Origin: Hymenobacter tibetensis
Lineage (GTDB): Bacteria; Bacteroidota; Bacteroidia; Cytophagales; Hymenobacteraceae
Direction: 5' to 3'
Length of the DNA: 64,000 nt
NCBI RefSeq assembly: GCF_022827545.1
Contig: NZ_CP094669.1
Coordinates: forward strand, 3,376,001-3,440,000
Positions 19,729 through 26,458 of this stretch are shown here, piece after piece. The notes under the pieces were generated by a model. The model saw nothing but the letters and a program-made list of their open reading frames with translations, was not told the DNA's origin and searched no databases. The translations under genes were made by a program, and so were the position numbers. The first letter of the stretch is position 1; every line of letters begins with the position of its first letter.

Positions 19729-21132
19729 CTAGGCACCACCTTCCATCCGCACGATACGCGGGGTGAAAGAGCCCAGCACATCTACCAGGTCCGTCTGGCT
19801 GGCCATGACGGCCCGGATGTCTTTGTAGGCTTGCGGCGCTTCATCTAGGCCACCGCCGATTAGCTCGATGTTGTGCTGCTGGAGGTAACGCTTCACTTCT
19901 GCTTCGCCTAGCTCCTGCTTGGCCCGCGTCCGCGACATAGCCCGGCCGGCACCGTGCGAGGCCGAGGCCAACGACGCGGCGTTGCCCCGACCACGAACGA
20001 TAAAACCAGGGGCTGTCATCGAACCAGGGATGATACCGAGCACACCTTCGCCGGCAGGCGTTGCGCCTTTGCGGTGCACGATTACCTCGCGGCCATCTAC
20101 TAGGCGCTCTTTCCAAGCGAAATTGTGGTGGTTTTCCACTTTTGCCAGGGGCCGTTCGCCGAGGGCTTTGGCCAAGCGCTGGTGAATCTGGTGGTGGCAA
20201 GCCGAAGCGAAATCACCGGCCAAGTTCATGGCCGCCCAATATTCCTGTCCAGCTTCGCTGTCGAGGGAGAGCCAAGCCAGGTGCTGCGCCTCCGAAGGCA
20301 GCTGGCATACGTCTTTGGCAAGCTTGGTGTAGTGAGTGGCCACGCTGGCGCCCAAGCCCCGCGAGCCGGAGTGCGAAAGCAGCCCGAGGTACTCCCCTGG
20401 CGGCACGCCTAGTTCGTTGCGGGGGTCGGTGATGTTAACGATGCCCCACTCCACGAAGTGGTTGCCGCCGCCCGACGTACCGATTTGCTCGGCGGCCGTG
20501 GCTTGTTTGTTGCGCAGGAACCCGATATTCGTAAACTCGGCACGGTCGAGCACGGCGTGGTCGAGCTTTTGGCCGCGCTGAAACCCCTGTTTGTTGCCGA
20601 ACCGGGTGTTGTCGAGGAGGAGCTTGCGCATTTCCTGCACTCGTTGTTCCAAGTGCTTGGGTGGCAAGGCAAACACCGACAACGCCATCCGGCACCCAAT
20701 GTCAACGCCCACAGCATAAGGAATGACGGCATTATCAGTAGCAAGCACGCCGCCGATAGGCAAGCCATAGCCGTGGTGAGCGTCGGGCATGAGGGCACCG
20801 GCCACGGTGACGGGCAGTTTCATGGCCGTTTCCATTTGGTGAATAGCTCCGTGCTCGATGTACTCAGCTCCGAACACGGCGTACTCCTTGCGCTCGGCGA
20901 GAGCAATGTGGCGGCTGGGCGGTGGCAACAAGGCAGCCGCCGTATGGCTCCAGTCGAGGTCGGTGAGGAAATCGTTCGGGGTATTGAGTAGGCGCTGCAA
21001 CAGTGCCAGTTGGTCGGTTTGCGAGAGTTTTTTGAGGTGCTTGCGCTGCAGTTGTGCTAGCGCCAGCCCGATGGCCCGTCCTTCCGGGAAGCCAAGCTGC
21101 CGGAGGTCGTTGCCACGTAAAAGATTGCCCAT
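19729..21132 (-). CDS. rtcB: RtcB RNA ligase
   Basis: The 467-residue protein joins RNA 2',3'-cyclic phosphate or 3'-phosphate ends to 5'-OH ends using Mn2+ and GTP. Metal ligands and active-site motifs are present: VGVDIGCRMAL (Asp144, Cys147), GGGNHFVEWG (His225), LLSHSGSRGLG (His254), ENHHNFAW (His335) and ASHGAGR (His393, the residue expected to carry GMP). No archease or RtcA gene is seen nearby. It is the last gene of the minus-strand locus, starting about 90 bases past the last Y-RNA-like unit. Its leader shares the 13-mer CAAACAATCAACC with the Ro gene. Confidence 0.95.
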   Translation of the reverse strand: MGNLLRGNDLRQLGFPEGRAIGLALAQLQRKHLKKLSQTDQLALLQRLLNTPNDFLTDLDWSHTAAALLPPPSRHIALAERKEYAVFGAEYIEHGAIHQMETAMKLPVTVAGALMPDAHHGYGLPIGGVLATDNAVIPYAVGVDIGCRMALSVFALPPKHLEQRVQEMRKLLLDNTRFGNKQGFQRGQKLDHAVLDRAEFTNIGFLRNKQATAAEQIGTSGGGNHFVEWGIVNITDPRNELGVPPGEYLGLLSHSGSRGLGASVATHYTKLAKDVCQLPSEAQHLAWLSLDSEAGQEYWAAMNLAGDFASACHHQIHQRLAKALGERPLAKVENHHNFAWKERLVDGREVIVHRKGATPAGEGVLGIIPGSMTAPGFIVRGRGNAASLASASHGAGRAMSRTRAKQELGEAEVKRYLQQHNIELIGGGLDEAPQAYKDIRAVMASQTDLVDVLGSFTPRIVRMEGGA

Positions 21133-21223: not shown

Positions 21224-21326
21224 CTTCTCTAGGCGCTGGAGCAACTAACAGCCCGCGCAACGGGCCAAGCGGCCCGACTTAATAGAGTCGGAGTAGCGCG
21301 CACCTACGGCATCCGGCCCAGAGAAG
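21224..21326 (-). ncRNA. Y-RNA-like unit 1 (short, no T-arm)
   Basis: A terminal stem CTTCTCT/AGAGAAG closes a 103-nt unit. Inside the 5' strand is GATGCCGTAG followed by CGCGC...CTACTCCG. The 3' strand has GTTGCGCG and TGTTAGTTGC. CGCGC can pair with GCGCG as the second stem. The interior folds into CCGACT/AGTCGG and GGCC-GCTT-GGCC hairpins. There is no GTTCGA T-arm, so the tRNA-like part is missing. It is the last unit before rtcB and the most diverged from the motif consensus. Confidence 0.55.
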
Positions 21327-21328
21327 TA

Positions 21329-21407
21329 GAAATCGGGAAAGGCAACCATCGGCTAGCCGCTTGGATTTTCAGACGAAGTAAGACTAACCTACGACACCCT
21401 CCCTTTC
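21329..21407 (-). ncRNA. Y-RNA-like unit 2 (short, no T-arm)
   Basis: The 79-nt unit is closed by GGGAGGG/CCTTTCCC plus GAAA/TTTC. It has the 5' motif GTGTCGTAG, then TTACTTCG, and the 3' motif GGTTGCC. The second stem GGTTAGTC/GGCTAGCC is eight pairs including two G-U. No T-loop or D-arm is present, so it looks like a Ro-binding module alone. Only 2 nt separate it from unit 1. Confidence 0.6.
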
Positions 21408-21418
21408 TCTGAAATAAA

Positions 21419-21550
21419 CCGACAGGGCAACGGGCACAAAGCCCACTGATTGTGCTTAACCAACTGAGCTACTGCCTTGCGGCAAGTGGGACTTGAACCC
21501 ACGACCCCATCGTCCCAAACGAAGTAAGGCTTCGCTACGGCACCTGTCGG
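21419..21550 (-). ncRNA. Y-RNA-like unit 3 with permuted tRNA mimic
   Basis: The 132-nt unit has perfect terminal stem CCGACAGG/CCTGTCGG. It has the motif GTGCCGTAG, second stem GCGAAGCC/GGCTTTGT, then TTACTTCG, and the 3' motif CGTTGCCC. The middle reads T-arm GTGGG-TTCAAGT-CCCAC, acceptor-like TTGCC-GCAA-GGCAG closed by a GNRA tetraloop, then the dinucleotide TA and a D-arm (GCTCAGTTGGTTAAGC at 21454-21469). This is tRNA geometry with the natural ends joined and new ends opened in the anticodon/variable region. Confidence 0.8.
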
Positions 21551-21560
21551 GTAGTATTTA

Positions 21561-21707
21561 TGTACGGGGCAACAAGCGCCAAGCCTCCTGATAACCTGCT
21601 CTGCCAGTTGAGCTACAGCACCACCGAAGGGGCAGCACCAGCAGGACTCGAACCTGCAACCTGGGCAATGGAAATGCGAAGTATGGCCCGGCTACGGCAC
21701 CCGTACA
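21561..21707 (-). ncRNA. Y-RNA-like unit 4 with permuted tRNA mimic
   Basis: The 147-nt unit is closed by TGTACGGG/CCCGTACA. It has the motif GTGCCGTAG, second stem GCCGGGCC/GGCTTGGC, TACTTCG, and the 3' motif TTGTTGCCC. T-arm GCAGG-TTCGAGT-CCTGC is followed by a seven-pair, wobble-rich acceptor-like stem TGGTGCT/GGTGCTG with a TTCG-containing cap. Then come the dinucleotide TA and a four-pair D-arm GCTC-AACTGGCA-GAGC (21598-21613). Confidence 0.8.
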
Positions 21708-21720
21708 AGACAATAAAGTA

Positions 21721-21860
21721 ATGGGGTAACATGCGGTGGCCGTTTTTATAGCGCGTCTACCAGTTTCGCCACTCACAGCTTTGCGAGCTATGAGGCAGGA
21801 CTCGAACCTGCACATCTTTACAGAACTACACCGAAGTATCGGCTACCTACGACACCCATT
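21721..21860 (-). ncRNA. Y-RNA-like unit 5 with tRNA-Leu-like D module
   Basis: The 140-nt unit is closed by AATGGG/CCCATT. It has the motif GTGTCGTAG, second stem GGTAGCC/GGCCACC (one mismatch), TACTTCG, and the 3' motif TGTTACCC. T-arm GCAGG-TTCGAGT-CCTGC abuts a nine-pair acceptor-like stem CTCATAGCT/AGCTGTGAG with loop CGCAA, then linker TG and D module GCG-AAACTGGTAGA-CGC. Over 21 positions (21751-21771) the D module differs from the real tRNA-Leu at 17022-17103 at only two bases. Confidence 0.8.
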
Positions 21861-21889
21861 CCGAGGAACTGTTTTCCTTAAGATTTCGC

Positions 21890-22042
21890 GGCTTTCTACT
21901 AGGGCAACAGGCGCTAGCCACTCGGTTTTGCCCTACCAATTTCCGGCGCAATACGTTACCGCATCACTTCGGGAGTCGAACCCGCGACAAGAACCTATGT
22001 GGTGGCGAAGTAAGGCCAGCTTACGGCACCTAGTTGAAAGCC
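21890..22042 (-). ncRNA. Y-RNA-like unit 6 with permuted tRNA mimic
   Basis: The 153-nt unit has the long terminal stem GGCTTTCAACTAGG/CCTAGTAGAAAGCC (one A-A mismatch). It has the motif GTGCCGTAAG, second stem GCTGGC/GCTAGC, TTACTTCG, and the 3' motif CTGTTGCCC. T-arm CGGG-TTCGACT-CCCG is followed by an acceptor-like stem GTGATGCG-GTAA-CGTATTGC with a GNRA cap. A D-like GCC-GGAAATTGGTAG-GGC follows. Confidence 0.78.
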
Positions 22043-22062
22043 TTGGAAACCAAGGAAAAAAT

Positions 22063-22205
22063 CTGCTGGGGTGAAAAGCGCGAAGCGGTGGCCGAAGCCT
22101 TTCTGCTCTACCAAACTGAGCTACAGGCCCGGTTTGTATGCGAACTGGACCTGATACGATTCGAACGTACGACCCGAAGGAATGCTTTGCAACGACACCC
22201 AGCAG
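22063..22205 (-). ncRNA. Y-RNA-like unit 7 with permuted tRNA mimic
   Basis: The 143-nt unit has perfect stem CTGCTGGG/CCCAGCAG. The motif is GTGTCGTTG, with a weaker second stem (AAAGC/GCTTT) and diverged 3' motif (TTTTCACCCC). The tRNA-like core is the clearest: T-arm GTACG-TTCGAAT-CGTAT, immediately a seven-pair acceptor CAGGTCC/GGGCCTG with an extended capped tip, then TA, then D-arm GCTC-AGTTTGGTA-GAGC (22105-22121). ATTTTTT follows the 3' closing strand, so this unit alone could end like an intrinsic terminator. Confidence 0.8.
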
Positions 22206-22214
22206 GGTGATTTT

Positions 22215-22371
22215 CAGCTGAACCCACCAACTTCGGGGCAACAGGCGGCCGGCGTATTGTTCACGGCCGAAGCCGCGAAGTGGGACTCGAACCCGGCAAA
22301 CCTTCCAAAGAGGATTTGCTTCACCAGCGAAGTAACGCCCGCCTACGGCACCCGAAGTGGTGGCTCAGCTG
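22215..22371 (-). ncRNA. Y-RNA-like unit 8 (first transcribed) with permuted tRNA mimic
   Basis: The 157-nt unit has the longest terminal stem: CAGCTGA/TCAGCTG, ACCA/TGGT and CTTCGGG/CCCGAAG in series. It has the motif GTGCCGTAG, second stem GGCGG/CCGCC, TTACTTCG, and the 3' motif CTGTTGCCC. T-loop TTCGAGT on a short GGG/CCC stem is followed by an eight-pair acceptor-like TTCGCGGC-TTCG-GCCGTGAA with a UUCG tetraloop. No clear D-arm follows, so the mimic may be partial. Confidence 0.75.
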
Positions 22372-22374
22372 TTT

Positions 22375-22454
22375 GGAACGGCAAGCCGAAGCCATGTGCC
22401 TCGGCCAGCTGCCGTTCCGGCTGGCGGCTGCCGTAAGCTGGTCAGCCGCCAGCC
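22375..22454 (-). other. Two abutting long hairpins at the head of the Y-RNA-like array
   Basis: GGAACGGCA (22375-22383) pairs exactly with TGCCGTTCC (22410-22418), with an inner GCCGAGGC/GCTTCGGC stem. Directly adjacent, the 12-base GGCTGGCGGCTG (22419-22430) pairs exactly with 22443-22454. Neither is followed by a T tract on the minus strand. They could be processing sites, a regulatory leader or a degenerate ninth unit. Confidence 0.5.
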
Positions 22455-22596
22455 CAATTATAATAACGCAAGAATTAACATGATTATTGAGTGTTTTATG
22501 AAATAAATGTTTCCATTGATTTCTGTTGAGTTTACCTCCACACACTTCAGCTTCAATTACTATCCGTTCTATTACCCTGTTGCGGGCAGTTAGCTC

Positions 22597-23433
22597 TTAC
22601 GCCGACACCGTTGCAAAGGCTTTTTCAAACGCCGAAAGCGTTTCGTGTGGCGGCTTAGGGTCAAACACAGCAAAGTCGATGCGTTGGAAATGGCCGCGGA
22701 TATTGGGTTCAGCTACAGCCGTTGCAAACAAACTAGCTATCTGCTGCGGGCTGTTTTGAAATACGCCGCAGCCCCAGGCTCCTAGCACGAGCACCTCGCA
22801 CTTGTGAGAGGCAGCTATGGCCAGCACTTGCCGGATGCGCCGTTGCATGGTGGGCACCAGTTCGGGCAGCAGTTCCGGGTTGTTTCGGCTTAGAGCCCCC
22901 GCGTTGACGGCCGGGGACGTAATGAAATCAATCTGCACCGGTTGCGAAAGCCAGTTCCCGGCATCGTCGCGGAAGACGGGCACGCCAGGCGAATAGATGG
23001 CATGGTCGCTGTAGAGGCCAGTGTGGGCGGTGAGCGTGTTATGGCTGTACATTTCCCGGAATTGCTTTAGGCACGGATACAGCCCCGAAGAGCGGGCCAG
23101 GCTTTCTTCCTGGGCCTGACTGCCGCCCAAAAAGCCGCCACCCGGGTTGCGGGCCGAAGCAAAGTTCAGGCAGCCCACTCGCTTGAATTCTGCGGCGAGT
23201 TTGGTTGCGGCTTCGAGCGTAGTAGCCTGGTACACCCGGATTGGAGCTGGTTGGCCGGCAACTGGTTGAAACACCTCAAGCAACTGCGGCACGTCGGCAG
23301 GTTTGTACAGCACGCTTCCTTGCTCGGCTGCTTGTTGCCAAGGCGTCAGGTCGATGGTTCCGCCTGCGGAATTGCTGTAGCTGCCGCGTTGTAGGGCATC
23401 TAGGGTTTCGCGGGCTATGTGTCGGCGGTTCAT
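22597..23433 (-). CDS. Bacterial-type poly(ADP-ribose) glycohydrolase (TIGR02452-like macro domain)
   Basis: The 278-residue protein starts MNRRHIARETLDALQRGSYS. It contains the bacterial PARG signature GGG-X7-QEE (NPGGGFLGGSQAQEESLARSSGLY, about residues 97-120). Further macro-domain motifs are YSPGVPVFRDD, IDFITSPAVNAGALS and VLVLGAWGCGVFQNSP. Such enzymes remove ADP-ribose chains or modifications. I chose 23433 as start because the longer frame to 23586 overlaps the Ro gene and is not conserved-looking. Its position, 85 bases after Ro and just before the Y-RNA-like array, suggests a role in reversing ADP-ribosylation linked to RNA damage; this is inference. Confidence 0.9.
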   Translation of the reverse strand: MNRRHIARETLDALQRGSYSNSAGGTIDLTPWQQAAEQGSVLYKPADVPQLLEVFQPVAGQPAPIRVYQATTLEAATKLAAEFKRVGCLNFASARNPGGGFLGGSQAQEESLARSSGLYPCLKQFREMYSHNTLTAHTGLYSDHAIYSPGVPVFRDDAGNWLSQPVQIDFITSPAVNAGALSRNNPELLPELVPTMQRRIRQVLAIAASHKCEVLVLGAWGCGVFQNSPQQIASLFATAVAEPNIRGHFQRIDFAVFDPKPPHETLSAFEKAFATVSA

Positions 23434-23518
23434 GGTAGAAAGAGAAAGTATTCGGGCAGTTACCCGGGAGTGGCGGCAGCTTGTACTGGGTCGGATGCCA
23501 CTCCCGGGGCCGCATAGT

Positions 23519-25045
23519 TTAAAACTCAATGGCTTCGATTTCCGTGAGGGCGGAGCCGCCGTTGTCGAGGGCTTCGAGCACGCCAAACACTTTGTCGGAC
23601 CAGCCAGCTATCAGGGCCACTCCGTCTTCGGCGCGTACGTCGAGGGGGGCGGTGCCGTGGCCGGCGAGGTCGAAGAGGTACAGGCGAGCCTGGGGCGCCA
23701 CAGTACGGCGGTATTCTGCCCATTCCTGGGCTAACGTGCCACCGTCGGCGTTGCTGTTCCAGAGTTGCACGTCGGTGAACAGCATCACTTTATCAACCAC
23801 TTCCTGGCGCTGGCGCAGGTCGCGCACCACCAAGTAGCCGTTGGTGCTGTAGCCTACCTCGCCTTCGCGGCGGTAGAACTCGTCCACGTTGCGCAACACC
23901 GGGCCGCGGGGCATGCTGATGCGCTTCCACGTGTCGCCGAACATGCCGGCCGTGACGTGCTGGCAGCGGCTTTGGAGCAACATTCCCAGCACCAAGCTCA
24001 CATCGTAGAGCAGCACTTTGCTGCGCGGCGAAATGGGCGTTTGCATGGAGCTCGACACGTCGCAGGCCACTACCACGCGGGTTTCGGGGCCGAAACCACG
24101 CAGGTTGGCAGCACTGTACGAAATGGCATCTTCCAGCGCCGTAAGCACCGCCGATACGTGGCCGTTCTGCAACGCTTTCACCTCCCGGTAAGCGGCCAAG
24201 TAGCGGAACGGCAACTGCTTGCTGCGCGCCACTGCGGCCCGGTCTGAGAGGGCTGCGCACACCTCTACCACTGCCTCCGCCGACACGCCGGCTTCGAGGA
24301 TGTTGCGTAGGTTGCGCAGCAAGGCCATGTAGCCCAGCTTGCCGCTAGCAATCAGCGTTTCCCACTTCTCTTGAAAAGCCGCCGTGCGCTCTTCTTGCGT
24401 GGCGTAGGTGGCCTGCCCTAGCGCCGACAACTCGGTTTCCCAGGTGTAAGGCGTGGGCAAGGTGCCCGCCACCAACTGGTTGAACAGGGCTTGCTGCGCC
24501 TCGTTGCGAGGCGTGGGGTGCACCAAGAACAGCGCGTCGCGCAACCGCACGGCACCGGCTCGGTCGTACTTAGCCAACTGGTAGCCGTCGAAACGGTTGA
24601 AGCTAACGGCCAAGCCTTTCTGGAGCTGCTTGGAGAGGCGGTTGAGGGTTTTCACCCCGGTGCGCTGGTTCACCTGCGCATAGCATGCCAGCAACTCCGT
24701 GATTTCATCGGGGCGCTGCACGATGCGGGCCACCAAGCGGCTCACGAGGTTGTCGCCGCGGTGCAAACGCGCCAGTTCTACGGCCAACACCAGCGGCACC
24801 GAACGCAGGTACATCTGCTCACGAGCGTATACCGCCAATTGCGCCACAAACGTGGGGTCGTTGCGGGCCACCAACTCGCGCAAGCGGGCCAGCCGCGTGT
24901 CGGCTTTCTCGTAGAACTGGTCGCTGAGGGCGGCCGTAGCTACGGCGGCGTACAGTTCCAATTGCGGCGTGAGCGTGAAGGCGGGTGCACCCTCGTGGTT
25001 CACGGTGTTAGGTTGAGCTTTGCGGAAAGTAAAGTTGAAACGCAT
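23519..25045 (-). CDS. rsr: Ro60-like TROVE-domain protein
   Basis: The 508-residue protein has an N-terminal TROVE module of helical HEAT-like repeats (about 25-310, for example DPTFVAQLAVYAREQMYLRSVPLVLAVELAR and KLGYMALLRNLRNILEAGVS). A C-terminal von Willebrand A domain follows, whose MIDAS motif is DVSSSM (Asp329, Ser331, Ser333). This is the architecture of Ro60/Rsr, a ring that binds Y RNAs outside and misfolded RNA ends through its central hole. It lies 108 bases after the PcfJ-like gene and upstream of the PARG and Y-RNA-like array, which supplies probable RNA partners. Family name rsr used by analogy. Confidence 0.93.
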   Translation of the reverse strand: MRFNFTFRKAQPNTVNHEGAPAFTLTPQLELYAAVATAALSDQFYEKADTRLARLRELVARNDPTFVAQLAVYAREQMYLRSVPLVLAVELARLHRGDNLVSRLVARIVQRPDEITELLACYAQVNQRTGVKTLNRLSKQLQKGLAVSFNRFDGYQLAKYDRAGAVRLRDALFLVHPTPRNEAQQALFNQLVAGTLPTPYTWETELSALGQATYATQEERTAAFQEKWETLIASGKLGYMALLRNLRNILEAGVSAEAVVEVCAALSDRAAVARSKQLPFRYLAAYREVKALQNGHVSAVLTALEDAISYSAANLRGFGPETRVVVACDVSSSMQTPISPRSKVLLYDVSLVLGMLLQSRCQHVTAGMFGDTWKRISMPRGPVLRNVDEFYRREGEVGYSTNGYLVVRDLRQRQEVVDKVMLFTDVQLWNSNADGGTLAQEWAEYRRTVAPQARLYLFDLAGHGTAPLDVRAEDGVALIAGWSDKVFGVLEALDNGGSALTEIEAIEF

Positions 25046-25153: not shown

Positions 25154-26458
25154 CTACTCCCCAAGCAAGTGCTTGGGAACCAGCAGGCGGTTTTCGGTAG
25201 CCCAACGCCGAATCCAGACGCCTTCCTCATCGTTGGGGCGGCGGTTGAACAGCCCACGGGCCTGCACTATCGTGCGGTTGGCTTGTACTTCCAGCGTCAC
25301 GGCGCGGGTACCGTTGAGGGTGAGCGAGAAAATAGCGCTACGCCCCCGCCGACAGGAATCGAAGTAGGAAGCCACGCAGTGCCGCAGGGTGCGCCCCTCA
25401 TCGAGCAGGTTCCAGTAGGTGCGCAACTGGGTGATACGCACTGGGCACTTGCTCCCTCCGGAAAAGTCCGGTACTGGTAGCGGCACCCAGGTGGTATCCA
25501 GCGTTAGGGTGGTTTCAGGCACCCGGTACGGAGCCTGAGCTAGCTCGCGGTGCCACTGCGCCGTTTGCGTCAGTACACTGCTCATCGAGCGACCCTTCAA
25601 GGAAAAGCCCGGCTGAGCTGGTTCATCCTTGATGCCTACCGCGCGCTTCTGATGAATCCAGTCGCACACGGGCCCCAGTTGGTAGGGGTCGACCATGGGT
25701 GTGGCGGCAAAGAAGTCCACCACCCGCAGCCAAAACTCGTCGTCGCGCCCCAACTGGCGGCTCAGGCGGGAGTCGAGCACCGGCCCGAGCCAAGCCAGCT
25801 GGTCGCGGGCTGCGAGTTGGGCGTAGCGCAGGGCATGCAGAAAAGAATACCCCGCCGGAGCCAGGCGCAGGTGGTGTTCTACCTTGCGGCTAAGCGGCAC
25901 CGGCAGCCCCCGAAAGGTGCGCAATGCCCCACCCCGCCCTAAGTGCACAGTTAGCTCCGCAATGTTGAGGCCATCGTGCAGGCGGCCGGCAGTCCAGGAG
26001 TTGATAACCCAGGCTGGTATGTCGCCATAGTGGTCGAAAAGGTGGCGCACCAGGCTTTCCAGCTGCCGAAAAGGGTTCCGGCTGCGGGGCTGCCAGTCGG
26101 TGAGTTCCCGGCAGCGCTGGGGCAGCCACCGGGCCACTGCCGCCAAGGCCGGGGCCAGTTCGGGGCGCCAAAGTAGTTCGGTACGCTTAGTGGCCAGGCC
26201 ACGCAATAGACTAGCACATTGGGTGCGCTGCTGCTCTTTCTGTTCGTGGATACAGTGCCGGTAAAACTGCGCCAGCGCTGAATTATCGCCCAACTGGGCA
26301 TTGATAACGGGCAGCGAGCCGTAGAGCGAAAACAAGTATTCCACCTGTTGAGGGAGCGGCCAGCGGCGCCAGTCGAGGCGCTTGGCCGCAGAGAGTACTA
26401 TCCGCGCCTGCTGGGCTTCCCAGGCGGCGTGGGATAAGGGTTTGAGACGGTTGGACAT
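25154..26458 (-). CDS. PcfJ-like protein
   Basis: The 434-residue protein carries the PcfJ-type C-terminal region (about 345-425): YWNLLDEGRTLRHCVASYFDSCRRGRSAIFSL, then AVTLEVQANRTIVQARGLFNRRP. The His360-Cys361 pair and the LEGxxxxHCVxSY pattern are the family signature. The N-terminal 340 residues are helical and Trp/Leu-rich without recognisable domains. PcfJ was named from a conjugative plasmid, and to my knowledge its biochemistry is unknown. Here it is the first gene of the Ro-PARG-RtcB locus, so an RNA-related role is plausible. Confidence 0.75.
   Translation of the reverse strand: MSNRLKPLSHAAWEAQQARIVLSAAKRLDWRRWPLPQQVEYLFSLYGSLPVINAQLGDNSALAQFYRHCIHEQKEQQRTQCASLLRGLATKRTELLWRPELAPALAAVARWLPQRCRELTDWQPRSRNPFRQLESLVRHLFDHYGDIPAWVINSWTAGRLHDGLNIAELTVHLGRGGALRTFRGLPVPLSRKVEHHLRLAPAGYSFLHALRYAQLAARDQLAWLGPVLDSRLSRQLGRDDEFWLRVVDFFAATPMVDPYQLGPVCDWIHQKRAVGIKDEPAQPGFSLKGRSMSSVLTQTAQWHRELAQAPYRVPETTLTLDTTWVPLPVPDFSGGSKCPVRITQLRTYWNLLDEGRTLRHCVASYFDSCRRGRSAIFSLTLNGTRAVTLEVQANRTIVQARGLFNRRPNDEEGVWIRRWATENRLLVPKHLLGE

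What the first reader, a model, noticed from the sequence alone, without database searches (positions are those of the whole stretch)
21224..22371. Tandem array of eight Y-RNA-like genes between PARG and rtcB
Read on the minus strand, this 'empty' 1.15 kb resolves into eight consecutive units of 79-157 nt. Each is closed by its own, different terminal stem. All share GGTGYCGTAG near the 5' end, TWACTTCG about 8 nt later in most units, and TGTTGCCC near the 3' end. A second stem between these motifs is kept in most units by different bases (for example GCGAAGCC/GGCTTTGT, GCCGGGCC/GGCTTGGC, GGTTAGTC/GGCTAGCC), which is compensatory change. A Ro60 homologue is encoded just upstream. Bacterial Y RNAs are usually described as one or two genes; an eight-member array in an RtcB/PARG locus would be unusual. 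Spacers of 2-29 nt suggest one precursor cut into units.
Basis: partly seen in the sequence, partly recalled or inferred. Interest (0 to 1): 0.95.

Follow-up and report, generated by a model that had tools for sequence, protein, structure and literature searches.

The report
Y RNA array wearing tRNA anticodons
Between the genes for a Ro60-like RNA-binding protein and the RNA-repair enzyme RtcB, a Hymenobacter-type bacterium carries eight short predicted RNA genes, six of them built partly like rearranged tRNAs and two of these with complete anticodon-type arms, which likely act as repairable decoys that would be cut in place of real tRNAs.

Summary
The eight-unit array is real. A covariance model finds all eight units, with strong compensatory change in every helix. 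The order is Ro60 - PARG - array - RtcB. Similar arrays sit at Ro60 in 47 Hymenobacter-type loci (3-11 units, median 7) and 33 other loci, nearly all Bacteroidota (1-8, median 5). In 150 family genomes the array is found in exactly the 65 with near-full-length Ro60, and in none of 4 with only Ro60 fragments.

Many add a complete anticodon arm (2+3 bp, 7-nt loop), absent from the Rfam YrlA consensus. Put back in linear order, 58 of 61 such units are called tRNAs with the expected anticodon (shuffled 0 of 610). U33 and purine 37 are kept (59 and 60 of 63) while the triplet varies: 12 triplets among 34 loci with one such unit. Eight units carry an exact 19-nt tRNA-Asn anticodon arm.

Best reading: Ro60-bound, RtcB-repairable decoys for anticodon nucleases. 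The structure is well supported; expression, Ro60 binding and decoy function are untested.

The parts
22222..22365 (-). Unit 1: terminal stem, second stem, T loop on a 3-bp stem, acceptor-like hairpin; no D arm recognised. Preceded by a hairpin whose apex can be read as CCT-CTTTGGA-AGG (7-nt loop, triplet UUG). In 8 relatives a unit of this kind carries an exact tRNA-Asn anticodon arm.
   Evidence: R1, R2; sequence; relatives; the apex reading is by eye
22055..22213 (-). Unit 2: YrlA-like unit with T arm, acceptor and D arm, no anticodon arm; diverged 5' and 3' motifs
   Evidence: R1, R2; Rfam YrlA 40.9 bits, E 3.1e-7, below cut-off
21888..22044 (-). Unit 3: T arm and a D-arm-like part (GGAAATTGGTAGGGC); no canonical anticodon arm
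   Evidence: R1, R2; a seed of both models
21716..21864 (-). Unit 4: T arm; Leu-like D arm (GTGGCGAAACTGGTAGACGCGC against GTGGCGAAATTGGTAGACGCGC of this genome's tRNA-Leu(cag)); spacer resembles a long variable arm (by eye)
   Evidence: R2; sequences
21553..21715 (-). Unit 5: complete circularly permuted tRNA with anticodon arm
   Evidence: R1, R2 (a seed of both models); re-ordered, ARAGORN calls Gly(tcc)
21665..21677 (-). Anticodon arm tip of unit 5, GCA-TTTCCAT-TGC (anticodon UCC)
   Evidence: geometry
21410..21558 (-). Unit 6: complete circularly permuted tRNA with anticodon arm (D stem 3 of 4 pairs by eye)
   Evidence: R2 21417-21552, (a seed of both models); re-ordered, not called by ARAGORN
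21510..21522 (-). Anticodon arm tip of unit 6, TCG-TTTGGGA-CGA; the loop equals that of this genome's tRNA-Pro(UGG)
21326..21412 (-). Unit 7: short unit without T or D arm; carries CTGAAAA, the tRNA-Phe loop, on a weak stem
   Evidence: R1, R2; sequences; 13 of 86 short units have CTTCG-N0-2-CTGAAAA
21225..21325 (-). Unit 8: short unit with an anticodon-like hairpin; here a 6-nt loop (CGACT-CTATTA-AGTCG), in relatives often CGAC-CTGTCAC-GTCG, the tRNA-Asp loop
   Evidence: R1, R2
23519..25045 (-). Ro60 homologue (Rsr): TROVE, and a weak match to the Ro60 vWA domain
   Evidence: Pfam: TROVE 1.3e-29; vWA_Ro60 1.4e-5 at 25.5 bits, under its cut-off of 27.7
22597..23586 (-). Microbial-type PARG (the ORF as listed starts at a TTG inside Ro60; the true start may lie further in)
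   Evidence: Pfam, PARG_cat_microb 3.8e-46
19729..21132 (-). RtcB RNA ligase, downstream of the array
   Evidence: Pfam, 1.4e-84; in 47 of 47 Hymenobacter-type loci

Best explanation
It is a tandem array of eight predicted Ro60-linked Y-RNA-like genes, most of them holding the T arm, acceptor and usually the D arm of a tRNA in circularly permuted order and two holding a complete anticodon arm as well, and it likely works as a set of tRNA decoys that anticodon nucleases would cut in place of real tRNAs and that the neighbouring RtcB would re-seal. Shown from sequence: the array, its helices, the permuted tRNA geometry, the anticodon-type loops, their variation between species, and co-occurrence with Ro60. 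Inferred: the RNAs are made; Ro60 binds the outer stem; the anticodon loops are bait. The inserted Y stem joins the two sides of the anticodon arm, so a cut loop should leave both ends held together, which would suit re-joining by RtcB.
For: Helices: covariation 0.578 and 0.717 against shuffled 0.19-0.20 and slid at most 0.186. Anticodon-arm geometry: in 270 distinct T-arm units, a 3-bp hairpin with a 7-nt loop exactly 7 nt before the T stem occurs 63 times (53 in Hymenobacter-type loci with the window, 10 in others); the other 95 gap/loop combinations give 0-22, mostly under 10. In 111 units chosen only by spacer length, 66 have all three stem pairs, against 18.9 (max 32) with partners shuffled and 0-29 slid. 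U33 in 59 of 63, purine 37 in 60 of 63; in the 111, 80 and 91. Loops equal a loop of this genome's tRNAs in 24 of 63, against 7.1 (max 16) column-shuffled. Re-ordered: 58 of 61 called tRNAs with the expected anticodon, shuffled 0 of 610. Exact 19-nt tRNA-Asn anticodon arm in 8 units of 8 loci (7 met the motif filter, where 20 shuffles reached at most 15 nt). CTGTCAC (Asp loop) in 20 of 86 short units, 0.28 expected, max 2 in 200 shuffles. In one class of unit (42 units in 38 loci) U33 is kept in 41 and purine 37 in 40, with 15 triplets; 12 triplets in the 34 loci with a single such unit. Array and Ro60 co-occur 65 of 65. RtcB downstream in 47 of 47 Hymenobacter-type loci. Hughes 2020 proposed YrlA's tRNA-like domain as a possible competitive inhibitor of an anticodon nuclease and showed that tRNA fragments induce a Ro60/Y RNA/RtcB operon (PMC7790460, passages).
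Against: No expression or binding data. At the level of distinct loops, matches to real tRNA loops are not clearly above chance (5 of 32 against 1.7 expected, up to 6 in shuffles; 5 of 32 against 2.6 with a wider but less reliable reference). The Asn arms apart, no other of 540 scanned unit starts shares 12 nt or more over positions 33-37 with this genome's tRNAs. Of the 63 loops, four lack U33 and three have U37, and some triplets (UUA, AUU, AAU) are, as I recall, not used by bacterial tRNAs. Positions other than the anticodon vary as much (38, and 50, 59, 64 in the T arm). In short units a 7-nt loop is no unique peak (35 of 86; 9-nt 38, 6-nt 23), though these counts overlap. Several unit types have no anticodon arm (units 2, 3, 4 here). 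Outside Hymenobacter-type loci only 7 of 33 loci pass the strict loop test. In E. coli the related RtcB2-PrfH module does not protect against the tRNA-cutting colicins E5 and D (PMC9223846, section 2.4).
Confidence: 0.5

Rival explanations
1. Ordinary Y RNA function in several copies: each unit tethers Ro60 to an effector such as PNPase or gates RNA entry to Ro60, and the anticodon arm only stabilises the tRNA-like fold.
For: Tethering Ro60 to PNPase is the studied role of bacterial Y RNAs (passages of PMC7790460 and PMC8394870). Units without an anticodon arm stand in the five arrays printed (by eye). Co-occurrence with Ro60.
Against: A purely structural arm would not need U33 and purine 37 (59 and 60 of 63), nor short units that are little more than a Y stem and an anticodon-type loop, nor many different triplets in one class of unit.
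Confidence: 0.22
2. Sensors rather than decoys: cleavage of a unit in its anticodon loop is the signal that switches on repair or a response.
For: tRNA fragments with cyclic phosphate ends activate RtcR in Salmonella (PMC7790460, passages). Arrays offer several different loops.
Against: No RtcR or similar sensor was looked for; Ro60 and RtcB lie next to the array rather than a known effector.
Confidence: 0.12
3. Permuted tRNA genes: a nuclease removes the Y stem, RtcB closes the anticodon stem, and RNases P and Z open the acceptor loop to give spare working tRNAs.
For: Order 3' half - intervening sequence - 5' half and a circular intermediate are known for algal permuted tRNA genes (PMC3978253, passages). 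Helix lengths are canonical by construction of the search. Outside Hymenobacter-type loci CCA stands at 74-76 in 4 of 83 units (mean 0.9, max 3 at other offsets). The body follows the anticodon's amino acid slightly better than chance (below).
Against: In Hymenobacter-type units CCA is not enriched (2 of 190; mean 2.65, max 8 at other offsets). On 57 units the body follows the anticodon's amino acid only weakly (mean rank 0.243 against 0.288 permuted, 4 of 500 permutations as low). Triplets such as UUA and AUU would be useless or harmful. Many acceptor stems have mismatches (26 of 61).
Confidence: 0.07
4. Mimics for tRNA-modifying enzymes (for instance those that read U33-G34-U35 or the D and T arms), soaking up or guiding them.
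For: YrlA is modified by DusA and TruB (PMC8394870, passages). CTGT-loops are the commonest among short units with a 7-nt hairpin (20 of 35).
Against: The other loops (UUU, CUU, UGG, UCC, CAG and more) call for many different enzymes.
Confidence: 0.06
5. Decaying tRNA fragments with no function.
For: Some loops are degenerate (unit 8 here has 6 nt; see evidence against the decoy).
Against: Covariation, retained U33 and purine 37, co-occurrence with Ro60.
Confidence: 0.02

Closest known systems
YrlA / bacterial Y RNA (Rfam RF02553; Salmonella rsr-yrlBA-rtcBA)
   Same: Ro60 and RtcB neighbours; closing stem; T arm, acceptor hairpin and D arm in permuted order; partial match to the model
   Different: Below the Rfam cut-off; arrays of up to 11; GGTGYCGTAG / TACTTCG / GTTGCCC motifs; short units; many units add a complete anticodon arm, for which the YrlA consensus has no room (11 nt between inner stem and T stem, against about 27 nt in unit 5)
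Circularly permuted tRNA genes of algae and an archaeon (PMC3978253, passages)
   Same: 3' half before 5' half, acceptor ends joined by an intervening sequence
   Different: A long Y stem is inserted at 28/29; linked to Ro60; body only weakly matched to the anticodon; CCA not enriched in Hymenobacter-type units; not expected to be charged
tmRNA (recalled)
   Same: A tRNA-like domain in a larger bacterial RNA
   Different: No message part seen; full anticodon arms
RtcB-based resistance to RNA-cutting toxins (RtcB2-PrfH against colicin E3, PMC9223846, abstract and section 2.4)
   Same: RtcB as a shield against ribotoxins
   Different: There the repaired RNA is 16S rRNA and tRNA-cutting colicins are not countered; here the proposed target is a decoy

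Membership tests
YrlA (Rfam RF02553) | Score at or above the curated cut-off (69 bits) | tested here: not met
   Best 40.9 bits, E 3.1e-7; no array match in the gathering scan
YrlA (Rfam RF02553) | Permuted tRNA-like domain: T arm - acceptor - D arm | tested here: met
   (T stem 98.6% and 99.0%, D stem 87.9% and 91.3% of cells paired). Seeds were chosen to have a T loop; units 7 and 8 of the window lack the domain.
YrlA (Rfam RF02553) | No anticodon arm in the tRNA-like domain | tested here: not met
   Consensus printed; anticodon arms. Units 2-4 of the window do lack it.
Bacterial Y RNAs in the wide sense | Encoded with a Ro60 homologue | tested here: met
   65 of 65 genomes; 0 of 4 with only Ro60 fragments
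Bacterial Y RNAs in the wide sense | Ro60 binds the closing stem | not testable with these tools
   Needs co-immunoprecipitation; a review reports Y RNAs in Ro60 complexes of Bacteroides thetaiotaomicron (PMC11277228, passage)
Circularly permuted tRNA genes | 3' half precedes 5' half, joined through the acceptor | tested here: met
   61 of 63 units selected by their anticodon hairpin
Circularly permuted tRNA genes | Gives a mature, chargeable tRNA | tested here: inconclusive
   CCA not enriched in Hymenobacter-type units, body only weakly matched to isotype; the product itself cannot be tested here
Canonical tRNA genes | Linear order 5' half then 3' half | tested here: not met
   native order called on the plus strand in 10 of 61, re-ordered in 58 of 61

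The most novel reading that the evidence does not exclude
Bacteroidota keep, on a constant Ro60-bound scaffold, a genomic repertoire of anticodons on permuted tRNAs: a set of repairable decoys whose targets are switched by single loop changes, tracking whichever anticodon nucleases the lineage meets.
Probability: 0.35. Interest if true: 0.97.

Novelty: new variant of a known kind. Interest (0 to 1): 0.9.

Why it matters
What bacterial Y RNAs beside RtcB are for is open; the 2020 paper says its studies did not address it. Anticodon arms of many kinds on one scaffold make one proposal directly testable: take a unit and the nuclease that cuts the tRNA with that anticodon, and ask whether the unit is cut and re-sealed. 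If true, it would be a defence made of RNA bait with changeable specificity. It also warns annotators: these arrays can look like tRNA genes (ARAGORN calls a tRNA-Gly inside unit 5).

Tried and rejected
Rfam at gathering scores finds nothing in the array. Model R1 (14-nt flanks) reported only 6 of 8 units in the window, most likely because neighbouring matches overlap; R2 with shorter flanks finds 8.

A wider tRNA loop reference from ARAGORN on the fetched loci looked unreliable (odd loops, 51 of its calls dropped by filters). Against it the distinct-loop match was 5 of 32, 2.6 expected, with 190 of 2000 shuffles as high: not significant.

Viral contigs: 4 motif matches, none with an R2 match at E <= 0.01 and none with Ro60, PARG, RtcB or PcfJ-like proteins at E <= 1e-3; taken as chance. 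A first attempt to list short units by motif gave only 18, some false. A regular expression for short-unit loops found nothing because it was badly written; one search replaced it. Selection by the TACTT anchor is looser (U33 50 of 67, purine 37 53 of 67) and takes in mis-registered units; its '16 triplets in 44 units' includes two such units and becomes 15 in 42 without them. The motif filter missed one Asn-arm unit (L103), found.

Literature: no paper seen that describes anticodon arms in Y RNAs or such arrays. The searches were made, in an open-licence library only; of the papers listed I saw passages, abstracts or single sections of six. The key 2014 YrlA paper is not held, so absence from print is not shown.
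Full report
Observation. On the minus strand between PARG and rtcB lie eight units, each with its own closing stem. A covariance model with short flanks (R2) finds all eight and nothing else in the window at E <= 0.01, E 1.2e-26 to 3.1e-6. Units 3, 5 and 6 are among R2's 40 seed sequences; the other five are not. Compensatory change is strong in every helix: on 29 units 88.2% of cells pair, with a covariation score of 0.578 against 0.192 in shuffles and at most 0.183 with partners slid; on 40 units 90.8%, 0.717, 0.203 and at most 0.186. The neighbours are a TROVE-domain Ro60 homologue, a microbial PARG and RtcB. The shared motifs are real, but not exact in all eight units.

Conservation. Eighty named loci with a Ro60 relative were fetched (176 candidates, the best 80 kept). 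R2 finds 3-11 units (median 7, 324 in all) in 47 Hymenobacter-type loci (one of them Solirubrum; one species twice) and 1-8 (median 5, 153 in all) in 33 other loci, including Chitinophaga, Mucilaginibacter, Chryseobacterium and Emticicia; two of the 33 are metagenome bins titled Williamsia and Limnohabitans (counted). Sixteen partial matches were left out. RtcB lies downstream in 47 of 47 Hymenobacter-type loci and somewhere in 9 of 33 others, PARG in 20 of 47. Among 150 family genomes Ro60 matches 69 and the array 65 at E <= 1e-9. The 65 are exactly the genomes with a near-full-length Ro60 match. The four others with a Ro60 match (G031, G036, G060, G087) have only fragments of it, and no array match. 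Two of the 65 (G056, G065) have stop codons inside the Ro60 match. The strict filter may hide weak arrays.

Anatomy. Rfam YrlA matches two units clearly and two weakly, all below its cut-off. Outside in, the full unit reads: closing stem; GGTGYCGTAG opposite GTTGCCC; second stem; TACTTC(G); then a tRNA in permuted order. That order is positions 29-31, 7-nt loop, 39-41, 42-43, five-nt variable loop, T arm, acceptor 3' strand, linker, acceptor 5' strand, UA, D arm, 26, 27-28. The Y stem therefore enters the 5' side of the anticodon stem between 28 and 29, and the acceptor is closed by a linker. In A2, whose seeds were not chosen for it, the 27-28/42-43 pairs form in 93.7% of cells, with change on both sides.

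The anticodon arm. In 270 distinct T-arm units a 3-bp Watson-Crick hairpin with a 7-nt loop lies exactly 7 nt before the T stem 63 times, 53 of them in Hymenobacter-type loci or the window; the other 95 combinations of gap and loop length give 0-22. To avoid choosing by the hairpin, 111 units were taken by spacer length alone: 66 have all three pairs, against a mean of 18.9 and a maximum of 32 in 2000 partner shuffles and 0-29 slid; U33 stands in 80 and purine 37 in 91 of these 111. In the 63, position 33 is U in 59 and position 37 a purine in 60. Of 63, an acceptor partner and D arm were found in 61; re-ordered, ARAGORN of 61 as tRNAs with the expected anticodon, shuffled versions 0 of 610, native order 10 of 61. 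These 61 were chosen by the hairpin, so this measures completeness of the tRNA, not its frequency. One of the three failures is unit 6 of this window.

Which anticodons. The commonest loop is CTTTTAA (Lys UUU, 15 of 63), then CTCTTAA (8), TTTGGGA (Pro UGG, 4) and CTGTTAA (Asn GUU, 3). With their multiplicity, 24 of 63 loops equal a loop of this genome's tRNAs (column shuffles 7.1, max 16); counted once each, 5 of 32 do (1.7, max 6), which is not compelling. Stronger single cases: eight units of eight loci contain 19 nt identical to the whole anticodon arm of tRNA-Asn(GUU), positions 26-44; seven of them were the only ones of 540 motif-picked starts with 12 nt or more over 33-37, where each of 20 shuffles gave 0-3 such starts and at most 15 nt. 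And 20 of 86 short units contain CTGTCAC, the tRNA-Asp loop, where 0.28 is expected. The loop-length test is weak for short units: 35 of 86 have a 7-nt loop on 4 or more pairs, 38 a 9-nt loop; in the 35, U33 stands in 30 and purine 37 in 23.

Variation. One class of unit in the Hymenobacter-type arrays (positions 42-43 CC, TC or CT; 42 units in 38 loci after two mis-registered ones were dropped) has 15 triplets, with U33 in 41 and purine 37 in 40; in the 34 loci with a single such unit there are 12 triplets, UUU in 16. Before that drop, entropy was 1.3-1.5 bits at 34-36 and 0.42 at 33; but 38 and T-arm positions 50, 59 and 64 are as variable (1.3-1.5), so the anticodon is not the only variable part. 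Between close species one letter can switch the triplet: unit 5 is TTTCCAT here and in H. norwichensis (L061) and TTTCGAT in L062.

In the window. Units 5 (UCC) and 6 (UGG) are complete permuted tRNAs with anticodon arms. By eye, unit 1 has a 7-nt apex loop CTTTGGA, unit 7 the Phe loop sequence on a weak stem, and unit 8 a 6-nt loop where relatives have 7. Unit 4 has a D arm that differs from that of tRNA-Leu(cag) by one base in 22. Units 2 and 3 show no anticodon arm.

Mechanism. Hughes and others suggested that YrlA's tRNA-like domain might competitively inhibit an anticodon nuclease (PMC7790460, passages). These arrays supply what that idea needs and YrlA lacks: anticodon loops, often of several kinds per genome, beside RtcB. 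Colicin E5 cuts tRNA-Tyr, His, Asn and Asp, and colicin D tRNA-Arg (PMC9223846, section 2.4); the Asp loop is the commonest among short units with a 7-nt hairpin (14 of 35). Because the Y stem joins both sides of the anticodon arm, a cut loop should stay held together, which should ease sealing by RtcB; this is inference. Against it: the related RtcB2-PrfH module does not protect against those two colicins in E. coli; not all units have a loop; nothing is known of expression.

Rivals. A pure Ro60/PNPase tether explains the stem but not U33, purine 37 and changing triplets. Permuted tRNA genes giving real tRNAs fit the topology, but CCA is not enriched in Hymenobacter-type units (2 of 190; 4 of 83 elsewhere, where 0.9 is the mean at other offsets), the body follows the anticodon only weakly, though better than in 496 of 500 permutations (57 units), and triplets such as UUA and AUU occur. 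Sensing rather than baiting remains open.

Novelty. The units work like, and probably descend with, bacterial Y RNAs, but fail the Rfam YrlA threshold and differ from its consensus by the anticodon arm. I file them as a new variant of a known kind. Ten literature searches in an open library found no description of such arms or arrays, but the 2014 YrlA paper is not held.

Noticed in passing
window 21631-21701: ARAGORN calls a tRNA-Gly(tcc) inside unit 5; ten of 61 anticodon-arm units are called in native order. Genome annotations of this clade may list array units as tRNA genes.
   Followed up: yes
L065, L068, L070, L079, L084, L085, L101, L103: An exact copy of the 19-nt tRNA-Asn anticodon arm in Y RNA units of eight loci, as if copied from the tRNA gene.
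   Followed up: partly
L074, L083, L087, L096 and window unit 4: A unit type with (in the units printed) a Leu-like D arm and, in relatives, a stretch like the long variable arm of tRNA-Leu (GCCGCAAGGCGT), without a canonical anticodon arm.
   Followed up: partly
genomes G031, G036, G060, G087: Four family genomes match Ro60 only in fragments and show no array.
   Followed up: partly
16 of 47 Hymenobacter-type loci, e.g. L063, L065, L067: A second, more distant RtcB gene lies further downstream (in L083, L090, L098 and L108 it reaches the end of the locus).
   Followed up: no
window 25154-26458: A PcfJ-like protein gene lies just before Ro60 and recurs beside it in many relatives.
   Followed up: no
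window 22372-22470: Two strong inverted repeats between PARG and unit 1; similar hairpin-rich stretches stand before the arrays of L065 and L101 (by eye). Possibly a leader or terminator.
   Followed up: no
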